A DNA stretch of 43,134 nucleotides from Deltaproteobacteria bacterium. GTDB lineage: Bacteria; Desulfobacterota; Desulfobulbia; Desulfobulbales; Desulfocapsaceae. Under the pieces are notes generated by a model, which was not told the origin of the DNA, did no database searches, and was given only the letters and a program-made list of their open reading frames with translations. Position 1 is the first letter of the stretch. Each line of letters starts with the position of its first letter. Both the position numbers and the translations under genes were made by a program. This document shows, in pieces, positions 16,500-41,235 of this stretch. Location: positions 1 to 43,134 of the forward strand of contig JAFDME010000002.1 of NCBI GenBank assembly GCA_019306075.1. Reading direction: 5' to 3'.

Positions 16500-16638
16500 T
16501 GATTCGGAAAACTTTCAGTCTCGCTGGATAAGTACCATGGTGCTATCACAGGCATATAATTTCAAAATACACTCCTCAATTTCACGGAGTCTACGCTTAC
16601 CTGTTTTTTATAATAGAAGTTTGCCCGTAAGGTACTAA
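16500..16638 (+). repeat. Dispersed intergenic repeat, copy 2
   Basis: ctggataagtaccatggt...catataatttcaaaatacactcctcaatttc...tgttttttataatagaagtttgcccgtaaggtactaac. Confidence 0.75.
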
Positions 16639-33848: not shown

Positions 33849-33982
33849 ATTAGTACCTTACTCCAGAAATTATGTAACAGAAAACAAGAAACTCAGGAGT
33901 GTATTTTGAAATTATGTGCTTATGTATTGACCATGGTACTTATCCAGTGTACTAAAAAATTTCCGACTTGTCGGGTCAGTTT
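33849..33982 (-). repeat. Dispersed intergenic repeat, copy 4
   Basis: Minus strand: AAACTGACCCGACAAGTCGGAAATTTTTTAGTACACTGGATAAGTACCATGGTCAATACATAAGCACATAATTTCAAAATACACTCCTGAGTTTCTTGTTTTCTGTTACATAATTTCTGGAGTAAGGTACTAAT, directly abutting the livG ATG. Confidence 0.85.
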
Positions 33983-34158: not shown

Positions 34159-36108
34159 TTAGCTGTTCAGTTCCGGAATATCAGCAAAAAAATCAAGTAT
34201 CTCAGGGTTCTTCAGAGCGTCTCTGTTTTTCACTTCACGCCCGTGAATCATTTTTTTGACAGCGAGTTCAACCTTTTTCATATTCAGAGTATATGGAATA
34301 TCAGGGGTCTCAATTATTTTAGCAGGGACGTGCCGAGGAGAGGCATTGTTTCGTATATTCTTTTTGATTCTCTCTTTTAACTCACCAGTCAGAGTGAAAT
34401 CCTGCTTCATTTTGACAAATAGAATAACCCGGGTATCGTTGTTCCATTCCTGGCCGACTACAACACTGTCTTCAATTTCCTCCATTTTTTCCATAAGCCG
34501 GTATATTTCGGCTGTGCCTATTCTGACCCCTCCTGGGTTGAGGGTGGCGTCGGACCGTCCATACATGACCACACCGCCCCTTTTGGTGATTTCAATAAAA
34601 TCACCGTGGGTCCAGATTCCGGGATACTCCTCAAAGTAGGCCGAATGATACTTCTTCCCGTCCTGGTCGTCCCAGAAGTAGATTGGCATGGAAGGAAAGG
34701 GTGCTGTGCAGACCAGTTCTCCCTGCTCACCGACAACCGGTTTACCGCTATGGTCATAGGCAAACACGTTCATACCCAACCCGAGACACTGGAGTTCTCC
34801 TGAGTAGACGGGACCCATGGGGTTGCCAAGAGCAAAGCATCCGTTGAGGTCAGAACCTCCGGATATGGAGGCCAGCTGCATGTCCTCTTTAATATCGGTG
34901 TAGATAAATTCAAAATCTTCCTCTGAAAGAGGAGAACCGGTGGAGAGCAGAGCCTTTATTGGCTGCAGATCAAACTGTTTTCCAGGTTTTACCCCTGCGT
35001 TTTTCAGGGCAGCAATATAGCCTGCACTTGTGCCGAACACTGTAATTTTTTCATCCTGGGCCATCTGCCACAGAGTTTCCGGCTTCGGATGGAATGGATT
35101 TCCATCGTAGAGAACGAGGGTTGCTCCTGTAGCAAGGGAACTGGTCAGCCAGTTCCACATCATCCAGCCGCAGGTAGTAAAATAGAATATGGTATCGTCC
35201 TTTTTCAGGTCGGTGTGAAACACCAGCTCCTTCAGGTGATGGATAAGGACTCCGCCTGCGCTCTGCACCATGCATTTAGGCAGCCCGGTAGTGCCGGAGG
35301 AGTACATGATATAGAGGGGATGCTCGAAAGGGAGCTGGGCGAACTCAATCTCTGTTGCCTTTTCCTGTTTGAAGTCCTGGAAAAGAACAGCGTTGGGCAG
35401 GGCTGAGATATCGGGTTCTTGGTCTGTGTACGGTATTGCAATAACTTTTTCGATGGATGGAATTTCTTTGATTATTTCTCCAATTCTGGCAAGACTGTCG
35501 ATGGGTCTGCCTTTGAAGAAGTAACCGTCTGCAGTAAAGAGTACTCTGGGTTTTGTCTGTCCGAATCTGTCCAGAACACCTTTAATACCAAAATCAGGAG
35601 AGCAGGAAGACCAGACTGCGCCAAGACTTGTCGCAGCCAGCATTGCAATGATAGATTCCGGCATGTTAGGCATGAACCCGACGACCCTGTCGCCGGCAAC
35701 AATACCCATCTCTTTCAGTGATGCGGCAACCTGTGCGGTTGCCGCATAGAGCTCTTTATAGGTGAGTGTCCGCCTGACGCTGTCTTCTCCCCGGAAGATC
35801 AATGCTGTCTCATCATTTCTAAACCGCAGGAGATTCTCAGCAAAGTTAAGTCGGCTGTTCGAGAACCAGTGTGCACCGGGCATTTTAGCAGGGTCATCCA
35901 CCACCTTGTCATAAGGTAGTGATGCTTTTATATCAACAAAATCCCATGTCTCAGCCCAGAAATTTTCCAGGTTATCAACGGACCACTGATGGAGCGCTCC
36001 ATAGTCAGTGAGACGGGTAGCATATTTTTCGTTGATCTTCTGCATGAACCTGTACATATTGGAACTTTTTATTCGCTGTTCCGTCGGTTGCCACAATAAT
36101 TTCGACAT
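34159..36108 (-). CDS. Acetoacetyl-CoA synthetase (acetoacetate-CoA ligase)
   Basis: 649 aa; LTDYGALHQWSVDNLENFWAETWDFVDIKAS...MPGAHWFSNSRLNFAENLLRFRNDETALIFRGED; MYSSGTTGLPKCMVQSAGGVLIHHLKE; typical AACS. Confidence 0.93.
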   Translation of the reverse strand: MSKLLWQPTEQRIKSSNMYRFMQKINEKYATRLTDYGALHQWSVDNLENFWAETWDFVDIKASLPYDKVVDDPAKMPGAHWFSNSRLNFAENLLRFRNDETALIFRGEDSVRRTLTYKELYAATAQVAASLKEMGIVAGDRVVGFMPNMPESIIAMLAATSLGAVWSSCSPDFGIKGVLDRFGQTKPRVLFTADGYFFKGRPIDSLARIGEIIKEIPSIEKVIAIPYTDQEPDISALPNAVLFQDFKQEKATEIEFAQLPFEHPLYIMYSSGTTGLPKCMVQSAGGVLIHHLKELVFHTDLKKDDTIFYFTTCGWMMWNWLTSSLATGATLVLYDGNPFHPKPETLWQMAQDEKITVFGTSAGYIAALKNAGVKPGKQFDLQPIKALLSTGSPLSEEDFEFIYTDIKEDMQLASISGGSDLNGCFALGNPMGPVYSGELQCLGLGMNVFAYDHSGKPVVGEQGELVCTAPFPSMPIYFWDDQDGKKYHSAYFEEYPGIWTHGDFIEITKRGGVVMYGRSDATLNPGGVRIGTAEIYRLMEKMEEIEDSVVVGQEWNNDTRVILFVKMKQDFTLTGELKERIKKNIRNNASPRHVPAKIIETPDIPYTLNMKKVELAVKKMIHGREVKNRDALKNPEILDFFADIPELNS

Positions 36109-36165: not shown

Positions 36166-36756
36166 TTAAAAACCGAAACCTTCCGGCAACTGTTCTGCAG
36201 TTGTTCCTTCCTCTACCCACGCCAGATCCAGAATTGTATAGGTAGGCCCGGTTGTTTTAAAAATGGGGACGACTCTCATACCGAACCTGGGAGTACCGAC
36301 CACCAGATAACTCATTAAAATGGTGGAAACGCCGTCGAATTCAATGTTGATAAATTTGATTGGCTTATCCAGCAGATTAAATGCCCCGGATCGTGCACAT
36401 TCCATGAAGGTATGTACCGTGGCACTTTTTTTTGCCACATCCGTCAGGTCGATCACACTCATCTTTGAGAGGCAGTCGGGACAACAGATGCGAAACGGGA
36501 TATATACTGATCCTGTAGTTCCACATTCCGCATTGTCACAACGGGTTGCCAGCAATTTTCCCTTGCTGAGAGACTCGAAGAATATTGCCTCTCCTCCGTA
36601 GGAGTGAATATAGGTCATTGCTCTGGGATTGGTTACACCCAACAGTTTCCAGTCATCATCCGCATTGCGGATGGGCATATTTGGAGTCAGGTGATGGAAA
36701 TCACCTTTAAGCTTGTACTGATTGTTTTTCACGAATACCTGGCCGAACATACTCAT
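36166..36756 (-). CDS. DUF35/OB-fold Zn-ribbon acyl-CoA-binding protein
   Basis: Zn-ribbon cysteines (CDNAECGTTGSVYIPFRICCPDC) followed by an OB-fold-like region; adjacent to a thiolase as is typical for DUF35 partners. Confidence 0.85.
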   Translation of the reverse strand: MSMFGQVFVKNNQYKLKGDFHHLTPNMPIRNADDDWKLLGVTNPRAMTYIHSYGGEAIFFESLSKGKLLATRCDNAECGTTGSVYIPFRICCPDCLSKMSVIDLTDVAKKSATVHTFMECARSGAFNLLDKPIKFINIEFDGVSTILMSYLVVGTPRFGMRVVPIFKTTGPTYTILDLAWVEEGTTAEQLPEGFGF

Positions 36757-38386: not shown

Positions 38387-38929
38387 TTAAACCGTTCCCA
38401 CCCACAGCACGAAACTTCGCTCTGTGCTGCTGTTAGTTATTTTCTGACTCTCCGGTTTCGACCAGAAGTGTGCTGCATCACCTTCAACCATATGAAAGGT
38501 TTCATCGCGTAAAGCCAGGTCAATGGAACCTTTTAGTACGCAGAGCACCTCCTGTCCCTTCTTTATATTTTTCCTTGCAGGAATTGAACGACCCGGCTCA
38601 ATCACCAGGATGGAGGAGTCTATGACGGTTCTGTAGTCAGGTGGAAAGAATCGCCGGGTGACAAAACCTATATGTGACAGATCAATGTCATCCCATTCCG
38701 ACTTTTTGATAAGTACCGCACTTTTTTGCCTGCTCATGCGGGAGAGAAGTTCTCCGGCGTCAACACCAATGGCCGAACAGATCCTCATGAGAGTGTCCAC
38801 TGAGGGAGAGTTTACATCATTCTCTACCTGGCTGAGAAATCCTTCGGAAACAGATGCCCTCTCTGCGACCTTTTTAAGGGTCAGATTCCGATCCTTCCGG
38901 TGTTTTCTTATTACAGTCCCTATATGCAT
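38387..38929 (-). CDS. XRE-family transcriptional regulator with C-terminal cupin domain (1)
   Basis: N-terminal HTH (IRKHRKDRNLTLKKVAERASVSEGFLSQVENDVNSPSVDTLMRI) and cupin-like C-terminus (EVLCVLKGSIDLALRDETFHMVEGDAAHFWS). Confidence 0.92.
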   Translation of the reverse strand: MHIGTVIRKHRKDRNLTLKKVAERASVSEGFLSQVENDVNSPSVDTLMRICSAIGVDAGELLSRMSRQKSAVLIKKSEWDDIDLSHIGFVTRRFFPPDYRTVIDSSILVIEPGRSIPARKNIKKGQEVLCVLKGSIDLALRDETFHMVEGDAAHFWSKPESQKITNSSTERSFVLWVGTV

Positions 38930-38949
38930 GGTGCGAGGCTACTCTTCTG

Positions 38950-39034
38950 TTAAGATTTCACATAAGTTAAGACTTAATCTATATTAAACCTTAACATGAA
39001 ATCAACATTAAAATGGAAAGCCGGCGATTTTTTT
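38950..39034 (-). promoter_or_regulatory. Promoter/operator module A, upstream of XRE-cupin regulator 1
   Basis: Near-identical to 41152-41235. Minus strand: GCCGGC...TTGATT-N16-TATAGAT then the palindromic TTAAG-T-CTTAA. Confidence 0.65.
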
Positions 39035-39193
39035 TGGGGAAAGTGTCTTTATCCCAAAAAGCTTCTGTGTTCACAGGCGGTTGTCTGCAGTTTTGCGAAG
39101 GTGTGGTCAGTTTCGGACAGGGCCTGATCTGTTGATATTGCCGATCCGATCATCATAACGTTTATTTCCCAAGGCATTACCATAGACTGAAAG

Positions 39194-39859
39194 TTATTTT
39201 CCATAGAGGACAGCAAGGATACGCGTTTGTCCTTCTTTGGAGGCAATAAGATGTGGAGTTGTGGACAGATAGTAAACACTGTCACCTGGATTTAGTTCGT
39301 AAAGATCGTCTCCGATTTTAAACAGGGCAGTGCCGTTTAAAACAAAAATAAACTCCTCTCCATCGTGGACGGACATTTCGCCATCTCTGTTTTCCTCAAG
39401 CTGGACGATGAAGGACTCCATATGCCTGCCCTTGACATCAGGAGCAAGTGTTTTGTAGCGATAGAGTGGTTTGCCATCTTTCTGTGATGTGGATCGAAGC
39501 ACCTTTTTTTGCTCACCATGTCTCGTTATCGAGTAAAGGCAGTTGCCTTCACCCGATAAAATCCTGCCAAAAGCACTGTCAAGGGCTTTTGAAAGTTTCA
39601 TCACCGTTCCAAGCTGGGGTTTCAGGGTGCCATTTTCTATATTTAAAAGTCTCTTTGATGAAAAGCCGGTCATTTTTGACAGCTCCTCAATTGAAACGTT
39701 TTTTTCTTCCCTTAATTTCTGAATTCGCTTCCCGACTTCTTCAATATTTTTTTCTTCCTGTTGGCTTATTTCGCCGGTAAGATCTTCAAAAAAATCTACA
39801 TTATCATATGGTTGTTTGTCTTCAGGGATCATGTCATCTCCTTGAGGAATATTTTTCAT
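39194..39859 (-). CDS. XRE-family transcriptional regulator with C-terminal cupin domain (2)
   Basis: HTH (IQKLREEKNVSIEELSKMTGFSSKRLLNIENGTLKPQLGTVMKL) and cupin (DGEEFIFVLNGTALFKIGDDLYELNPGDSVYYLSTTPH). Confidence 0.92.
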   Translation of the reverse strand: MKNIPQGDDMIPEDKQPYDNVDFFEDLTGEISQQEEKNIEEVGKRIQKLREEKNVSIEELSKMTGFSSKRLLNIENGTLKPQLGTVMKLSKALDSAFGRILSGEGNCLYSITRHGEQKKVLRSTSQKDGKPLYRYKTLAPDVKGRHMESFIVQLEENRDGEMSVHDGEEFIFVLNGTALFKIGDDLYELNPGDSVYYLSTTPHLIASKEGQTRILAVLYGK

Positions 39860-39906
39860 ATGAAAGTTCCCCCGTGAGCAGTGGCGGCGGGGCTTTCATT
39901 TTTTCA

Positions 39907-41055
39907 TCAGCAGCCTATGTGGCGTGAGATTACCAGTCTCTGGATTTCTGATGTTCCTTCACCTATATCAAGCAGCTTCTGGTCACGGTAGAAACGTTCC
40001 ACATCATATTCCTTCATAAGTCCGTATCCACCATGGATCTGCACCGCATGGTTGGCAACACGTCCCATCAGTTCCGAGCAGTAGAGTTTGCCCATTGCAG
40101 CTTCTTTTTCATAGGGTCTGCCTTCACTTTTAAGCCAGCAGGCCTTGTAAAGAAGGTTTCTTGCACACTCAATTTCGATGGCACAATCGGCAAGTTTAAA
40201 GGCAATGGCCTGGAATTTACTGATGGGCTGGCCAAACTGTTTTCTCTCTTTTGCATATTTCAGGGCTTGCTCGTAGGCGCCCTGCGCTCCGCCAAGGCCC
40301 ATTGCTCCAATGGAAAGTCTTCCTCCATCAAGAGTTTTCAGCATCTGGTGAAAACCGTCCCCTCTGCTTCCCAGTAAATTTTCCTTTGGAACACGAACAT
40401 TGTCAAAATAGAGTTCAGCTGTATTTGATGCTCGCCACATCATCTTCTTATGCATTGAAATAGCTTTGAATCCTTTCGTTCCGCTCTCAACGATGAAACA
40501 GGAATATTCAGGTTTACCATTCTCCTTTGTTCCTGTAATCGCCTGGACGGTAACACCGAGTGTCATCTCACAGGAGGCGTTGGTGATGAATATTTTCGAT
40601 CCGTTGATAACCCAGTCATCACCATCTTTCTTTGCTGTGGTCTTGCTCCCGCCCGCATCTGATCCCGCTGTCGGTTCAGTCAATCCAAATCCCCAGAGAT
40701 AGTTGCCACTGCACAATTTCGGCAGATATTTTTGCTTCTGCTCTTTGGTGCCAAAATAGTAGAGTGGGCCGATGCCAAGTGAATTACCCGCGGCAACTGT
40801 TGCTGCCTGGGAGCCGTCCACCCTTGCGAGTTCTTCAACGGCGATAATGTATGAGATATAATCCATCCCCTGGCCTTCATACTCGTCCGAGACAAACATG
40901 CCGAAGAGACCGATTTCTCCCATTTTTTTTGTGATATCAACAGAAAACTCTTCCCTCTCGTCAAGCTCGGTGGCGACAGGTGCAATTTCCTTTTTGGCAA
41001 ATTTTCTGACTTCTTTTTGAATCATTTTCTGTTCTTTTGATAGATCGAAGTTCAA
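39907..41055 (-). CDS. Acyl-CoA dehydrogenase
   Basis: MNFDLSKEQKMIQKEVRKFAKKEIAPVA; GFGLTEPTAGSDAGG; AVQIHGGYGLMKEYDVERFYRDQKLLDIGEGTSEIQRLVISR. Confidence 0.96.
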   Translation of the reverse strand: MNFDLSKEQKMIQKEVRKFAKKEIAPVATELDEREEFSVDITKKMGEIGLFGMFVSDEYEGQGMDYISYIIAVEELARVDGSQAATVAAGNSLGIGPLYYFGTKEQKQKYLPKLCSGNYLWGFGLTEPTAGSDAGGSKTTAKKDGDDWVINGSKIFITNASCEMTLGVTVQAITGTKENGKPEYSCFIVESGTKGFKAISMHKKMMWRASNTAELYFDNVRVPKENLLGSRGDGFHQMLKTLDGGRLSIGAMGLGGAQGAYEQALKYAKERKQFGQPISKFQAIAFKLADCAIEIECARNLLYKACWLKSEGRPYEKEAAMGKLYCSELMGRVANHAVQIHGGYGLMKEYDVERFYRDQKLLDIGEGTSEIQRLVISRHIGC

Positions 41056-41151
41056 AATAATCTCCTTTTCTTTTCATGTTAAAAAACAGGCCATGTCAGA
41101 GAGTGTGTTTCAGTACGCCTGGCACGAGTTTTATTTCCGGGGACTTTTCTA

Positions 41152-41235
41152 TTAAGATTTTATATAAGTTAAGACTTAATCTATATTAGACTCCAATAAT
41201 AAAGCAACATTTAAATGACTGCCGGCGTTTTTTTT
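41152..41235 (-). promoter_or_regulatory. Promoter/operator module B, upstream of the acyl-CoA dehydrogenase gene
   Basis: TTAAGATTTTATATAAGTTAAGACTTAATCTATATTAGA...GCCGGCGTTTTTTTT. The first 39 nt differ from module A at only three positions. Minus strand has TTGCTT-N16-TATAGAT. Confidence 0.65.

What the first reader, a model, noticed from the sequence alone, without database searches (positions are those of the whole stretch)
38950..41235. Duplicated promoter/operator module upstream of an XRE-cupin regulator and the acyl-CoA dehydrogenase
Seen directly: 38950-39034 and 41152-41235 align almost without gaps. 36 of the first 39 nt are identical (TTAAGATTTyAyATAAGTTAAGACTTAATCTATATTArA), followed by a shared GCCGGC and T8 tract. 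On the coding strand both have TTG(A/C)TT-N16-TATAGAT, a sigma70-like promoter, with the palindrome TTAAG-T-CTTAA placed at or just after the -10. Inference: one of the two adjacent XRE-cupin regulators autoregulates and controls the dehydrogenase through this operator, defining a local regulon for the acyl-CoA degradation cluster.
Basis: partly seen in the sequence, partly recalled or inferred. Interest (0 to 1): 0.62.

Follow-up and report, generated by a model that had tools for sequence, protein, structure and literature searches.

The report
Duplicated operator-promoter of an XRE-cupin repressor
Two nearly identical control regions in front of a regulator gene and a nearby acyl-CoA dehydrogenase gene are very likely binding sites of that same regulator (the 180-residue XRE-cupin protein), a self-regulating metabolic switch of a known kind whose linkage to the dehydrogenase recurs across sulfate reducers and spirochaetes.

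Summary
In detail: 38950-39034 and 41152-41235 are two copies of one promoter module (36/39 identical core; E 1.7e-19; only two copies in the genome assembly). The inference is supported and sharpened. The regulator is the 180-aa XRE-cupin protein (XC180, 38387-38929), not its 221-aa neighbour (XC221). XC180 orthologues (at least 66% identical) in 21 of 60 genomes of the family all carry the operator core over their own -10 region; 19 of those 21 genomes, against 1 of the 39 without the gene, give a hit in the motif scans. Two genus members that keep dehydrogenase-XC221 but lack XC180 also lack the operator. The operator is more than one palindrome: it is a three-unit array with a 17-bp period (unit roughly AATATTAACTAATRGTA), recovered from 61 non-redundant upstream regions in Desulfobacterota and Spirochaetes (lag-17 autocorrelation z = 13.6). 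The dehydrogenase is tied to XC180 in three layouts: same operon, divergent from a shared operator, or, as here, a separate unit with a duplicated promoter. Most likely mechanism: promoter occlusion by XC180, relieved by an unknown cupin ligand. It works like the local XRE-cupin repressors of Pseudomonas. Binding, repression and ligand remain untested.

The parts
38387..38929 (-). XC180, XRE (HTH_3) plus cupin regulator, 180 aa; proposed owner of the operators
   Evidence: Pfam HTH_3 7.5e-12, Cupin_2 3.1e-5; AlphaFold model: five N-terminal helices plus a C-terminal beta-barrel, best PDB match 1Y9Q, an HTH_3-family regulator; orthologues in Desulfobacterota and Spirochaetes
38942..38992 (-). 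Operator array before XC180: three 17-bp units 38992-38976, 38975-38959, 38958-38942
   Evidence: PWM from 60 XC180 upstream regions, period 17
38978..39005 (-). Promoter of XC180: -35 TTGATT 39005-39000, N16, -10 TATAGA 38983-38978
   Evidence: sequence; TTGAC-N16/17-TATA-like layout at the same place in most orthologues
41144..41194 (-). Operator array before the acyl-CoA dehydrogenase: units 41194-41178 (weak), 41177-41161, 41160-41144
   Evidence: 43/51 identical to the XC180 array; orthologous in three sister genomes
41180..41207 (-). Promoter of the dehydrogenase unit: -35 TTGCTT 41207-41202 (TTGATT in three sister species), -10 TATAGA 41185-41180
39907..41055 (-). Short-chain-type acyl-CoA dehydrogenase; TTG start 41055 preceded by AGGAG, start region conserved in five relatives
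   Evidence: Pfam Acyl-CoA_dh_1 2.8e-52; PDB relatives include butyryl/short-chain acyl-CoA dehydrogenases; start conservation
39194..39859 (-). XC221, second XRE-cupin protein, 47 bases downstream of the dehydrogenase; probable co-target
   Evidence: Pfam HTH_19, Cupin_2; paired with the dehydrogenase in six genomes of the genus and in L192
36853..38289 (-). Thiolase (NCBIfam PRK06365 family), downstream of XC180, probable target
   Evidence: 697 bits vs cut-off 695; follows XC180 in many orthologous loci
36166..36756 (-). Small protein usually following the thiolase; weak zinc-ribbon (ChsH2-like) match
34159..36108 (-). Acetoacetate--CoA ligase, probable target in the same unit
   Evidence: TIGR01217 921.7 bits vs cut-off 520.9

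Best explanation
The two modules are paralogous copies of one sigma70-type promoter carrying a three-unit, 17-bp-period operator for the XRE-cupin regulator XC180. XC180 dimers bind the array, cover the -10/start region and block RNA polymerase at two promoters: its own (XC180, thiolase, small protein, acetoacetate-CoA ligase) and that of the dehydrogenase-XC221 unit. A metabolite bound by the cupin domain would release it. Shown by sequence: the modules, the array, its conservation with XC180, and the recurrent XC180-dehydrogenase linkage. Inferred: binding, repression, the ligand, operon boundaries.
For: Operator core over the -10 region of XC180 in all 21 family orthologues. A 51-bp profile passes leave-one-out (p<=0.01 against shuffles) in 53 of 60 non-redundant upstream regions. 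Lag-17 autocorrelation z 13.6, lag-34 z 6.9. Of 60 family genomes, motif-scan hits in 19/21 with XC180 versus 1/39 without, counting the 11-bp genus variant; 14/21 versus 1/39 with one pattern at <=2 mismatches, Fisher p 9e-8. In four genus members the sites found are essentially these two promoters. G003 and G004 keep dehydrogenase (84%) and XC221 (58%) but have no detected XC180 orthologue and no operator. Dehydrogenase orthologues lie downstream of XC180 on the same strand in Spirochaetes and Desulfarculales-type genomes, and divergent from XC180 over a shared operator in L181 and L192. Precedent: Pseudomonas XRE-cupin proteins are local repressors bound at core promoters next to their own genes (PMC7901475).
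Against: No binding or expression data. Assemblies of G003 and G004 are incomplete (87% and 72%), so their lack of XC180 could be an assembly gap. The first unit of the dehydrogenase array is degenerate and its full-array score is modest (8.0 bits, against 19.9 for XC180). Related genomes are not independent observations, so the Fisher p value overstates significance. A few distant XC180 loci (L160, L164, L167, L169, L175) show no clear array. Activation instead of repression cannot be excluded from position alone.
Confidence: 0.84

Rival explanations
1. XC221, encoded directly behind the dehydrogenase, is the protein that binds both operators.
For: It is an XRE-cupin protein adjacent to both sites and is paired with the dehydrogenase in six genomes of the genus.
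Against: G003 and G004 have dehydrogenase-XC221 without operators. Most family genomes with XC180 and its operator have no close XC221 orthologue, only 35-41% homologues or none.
Confidence: 0.06
2. Both regulators bind the array, competing or forming mixed complexes, with XC221 tuning XC180 by feedback.
For: XC221 would be made from the XC180-controlled dehydrogenase unit and sits beside the XC180 promoter; feedback by paralogues is plausible (inference from the layout).
Against: The array is conserved where XC221 orthologues are absent; the two proteins share only about 22% identity.
Confidence: 0.06
3. The duplication is a mobile or dispersed repeat without a regulatory role.
For: Two copies 2.2 kb apart in one genome; the window does hold an unrelated dispersed repeat.
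Against: Only two copies genome-wide; same positions in four species, with orthologous copies generally more alike than the two copies within a genome; the array recurs at XC180 genes in other families and another phylum.
Confidence: 0.02
4. XC180 activates rather than represses these promoters.
For: Position alone does not prove repression; the -35 boxes here are weaker than in most orthologues.
Against: Units lie on and downstream of the -10 box, where bound protein normally blocks polymerase; all tested Pseudomonas XRE-cupin proteins inhibit.
Confidence: 0.1

Closest known systems
Local XRE-cupin repressors of Pseudomonas (PsdR, ErfA, PauR, PA1884 and others; PMC7901475)
   Same: XRE DNA-binding domain plus cupin sensor; sites in core promoters next to the regulator's own gene; for most members one or two targets in metabolism; palindromic recognition.
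   Different: Here the operator is a three-unit array with a conserved 17-bp period overlapping the -10/start region, the second promoter is a duplicate of the first, and targets are acyl-CoA, acetoacetate and thiolase genes in anaerobes. That paper reports different palindromic consensus sequences for three members.
PuuR (NCBIfam NF007408)
   Same: Best named NCBIfam match of XC180; same domain architecture (PuuR's architecture from general knowledge).
   Different: Scores 42.1 bits against a cut-off of 211, so XC180 is not PuuR; its neighbours are not putrescine genes.
1Y9Q, HTH_3-family regulator of Vibrio cholerae (structure only)
   Same: Top fold match to the XC180 model (Foldseek E 9.4e-10).
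   Different: 16% identity; domain arrangement not superposable as a whole (TM 0.37).

Membership tests
XRE-cupin local transcription inhibitors (PMC7901475) | N-terminal XRE/Cro-type HTH | tested here: met
   Pfam HTH_3 45.5 bits vs cut-off 23; aligned with DdrO 6jq1 at 1.2 A over 63 columns
XRE-cupin local transcription inhibitors (PMC7901475) | C-terminal cupin sensor | tested here: met
   Cupin_2 24.1 bits, just under Pfam's cut-off of 27.2, but the model has a beta-barrel and Foldseek finds cupins
[quoted passage not shown]
   Predicted sites overlap the -10/start region of XC180 and of the dehydrogenase 2 kb away; binding itself not measured
XRE-cupin local transcription inhibitors (PMC7901475) | Palindromic recognition sequence | tested here: met
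   Dyad correlation 0.93 and 0.86 at centres 17 bp apart in the profile
XRE-cupin local transcription inhibitors (PMC7901475) | Represses its targets | not testable with these tools
   Needs expression or in vitro transcription
XRE-cupin local transcription inhibitors (PMC7901475) | Released by a pathway metabolite bound in the cupin domain | not testable with these tools
   Ligand unknown; stated as the current model in the paper
PuuR equivalog | Scores above the curated NCBIfam cut-off | tested here: not met
   42.1 bits vs 211

The most novel reading that the evidence does not exclude
XC180 founds a widespread subfamily of XRE-cupin regulators in Desulfobacterota and Spirochaetes that binds cooperatively, as adjacent dimers, along a phased 17-bp array instead of a single palindrome, and whose promoter-operator can be copied to recruit a neighbouring gene set as gene order changes.
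Probability: 0.4. Interest if true: 0.52.

Novelty: new member of a known kind. Interest (0 to 1): 0.42.

Why it matters
It gives a specific regulator, a defined operator and a small target list for acyl-CoA/acetoacetate catabolism in uncultured sulfate reducers, where few regulons are known experimentally. It also offers a clear natural case of a regulatory link kept across three gene orders, once by duplicating the promoter. The predicted array makes cooperativity of XRE-cupin binding directly testable.

Tried and rejected
GCCGGC as a functional part: absent at both modules in three sister species. Larger own-genome regulon: three patterns and one BLAST search found no convincing third site in the own genome or in the sister genomes that have both sites. 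Recent duplication within this genome: the two copies are 76% alike, while each copy is 80-82% alike to its best counterpart in another species, so the duplication appears older than the species (weakly resolved). Simple inversion of an ancestral divergent arrangement as the source of the two copies: it would give inverted repeats, but the copies are direct repeats. Stem-loop between dehydrogenase and XC221: not more stable than shuffles (z -1.06). Paper searches for a described tandem-array XRE-cupin operator or for this regulon found none.

Full report
OBSERVATION. The two stretches are real and at the stated coordinates. Alignment gives 36/39 identical bases in the core and a near-ungapped match over about 95 columns. 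In the whole assembly (3.07 Mb, 307 contigs, about 85% complete) the second copy is the only significant match (E 1.7e-19; next 0.14). TTAAGNCTTAA occurs in the window only at these two sites.

SURROUNDINGS. All genes concerned run on the minus strand: acyl-CoA dehydrogenase (39907-41055, TTG start with AGGAG, conserved), XC221 (39194-39859), XC180 (38387-38929), a thiolase, a small protein, acetoacetate-CoA ligase, then a branched-chain-type ABC transporter and an acyl-CoA ligase. Close relatives in the genome collection are Desulfobulbaceae metagenome-assembled genomes.

WHICH REGULATOR. XC180 has orthologues (at least 66% identity) in 21 of 60 family genomes. All 21 carry a TTAA-N2/3-TTAA-type core (a few with one changed base) just downstream of or overlapping a TATA-like -10, mostly with a TTGAC-like -35, before XC180. 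A pattern from the family core hits, at two or fewer mismatches, 14 of 21 genomes with XC180 and 1 of 39 without (p 9e-8, uncorrected for shared ancestry). Adding the genus variant gives 19/21 versus 1/39. In the four genus members with both units, the sites found are those before XC180 and before the dehydrogenase. G003 and G004 retain dehydrogenase and XC221 but lack a detected XC180 orthologue and the operator. This assigns the operator to XC180; incompleteness of those two assemblies is the main caveat.

WHAT THE OPERATOR IS. Upstream regions of 61 non-redundant orthologues from Desulfobacterota and Spirochaetes show self-similarity at lag 17 (z 13.6) and 34 (z 6.9); no other lag exceeds z 7.3. 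A 51-column profile, not constrained to repeat, correlates with itself at 0.81 (lag 17) and 0.70 (lag 34) and at most 0.30 elsewhere in the range tested; it was seeded from three family operators. Leave-one-out detection succeeds in 53/60 at p<=0.01. Dyad centres also recur every 17 columns. In this genus and a few others the junction core is 11 bp (TTAAGNCTTAA); elsewhere it is 10 bp (TTAATATTAA).

EVOLUTION OF THE LINK. The dehydrogenase's close relatives (63-78% identity) are found downstream of XC180 in the same strand order in spirochaetes and several deltaproteobacterial genomes (L162, L168, L176, L179, L185, L186 and others), and divergently transcribed from XC180 across about 150 bp that hold the operator in L181 and L192; in L192 an XC221 orthologue follows it. 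In the window's genus the dehydrogenase-XC221 unit has its own copy of the XC180 promoter. In other genera a second operator copy precedes a two-thiolase operon instead (L047, L056, L059, L061). Module identities suggest the duplication predates the four species, though the resolution is weak.

MECHANISM. Units lie on and just downstream of the -10 box, so bound XC180 should occlude polymerase. XRE-cupin proteins of Pseudomonas are local inhibitors acting at core promoters next to their genes, thought to leave DNA on binding a pathway metabolite (PMC7901475). By analogy XC180 is an autorepressor that also represses the dehydrogenase-XC221 unit. The ligand is unknown; acetoacetate-CoA ligase, thiolases, the dehydrogenase and, in L192, a biotin-dependent acyl-CoA carboxylase point to short or branched acyl-CoA or acetoacetate catabolism (inference).

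STANDING. A well-conserved, previously unnamed (in the sources searched) member of a known kind of regulator, with an operator layout that may be a variant. All functional steps remain to be tested at the bench.

Noticed in passing
window 33895-33947 (+) and 16524-16576 (-): A dispersed repeat of about 53 bp (AGGAGTGTATTTTGAAATTAT...ACCATGGTACTTATCCAG) with at least 40 copies in this assembly and 5 to 41 matches in five of six other genus members, none in G006. Unrelated to the XC180 operator; could be a REP/MITE-like element or a widespread regulatory element.
   Followed up: partly
L080 and L081, just upstream of the dehydrogenase start (G003, G004): Both genomes lacking XC180 have an inverted repeat CCAAAT-N4-ATTTGG next to the ribosome-binding site of the dehydrogenase; possibly the operator of XC221 or a leader hairpin.
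   Followed up: no
L178, L180, L182, L188, L194, L195, L197 upstream of XC180: A second conserved near-palindrome, (TG)TCAATAATTAATTGACA, next to the XC180 promoter in one subgroup, suggesting another regulator there.
   Followed up: no
window 39860-39906 (-): Possible stem-loop between dehydrogenase and XC221; -15.1 kcal/mol, but not better than shuffles.
   Followed up: yes
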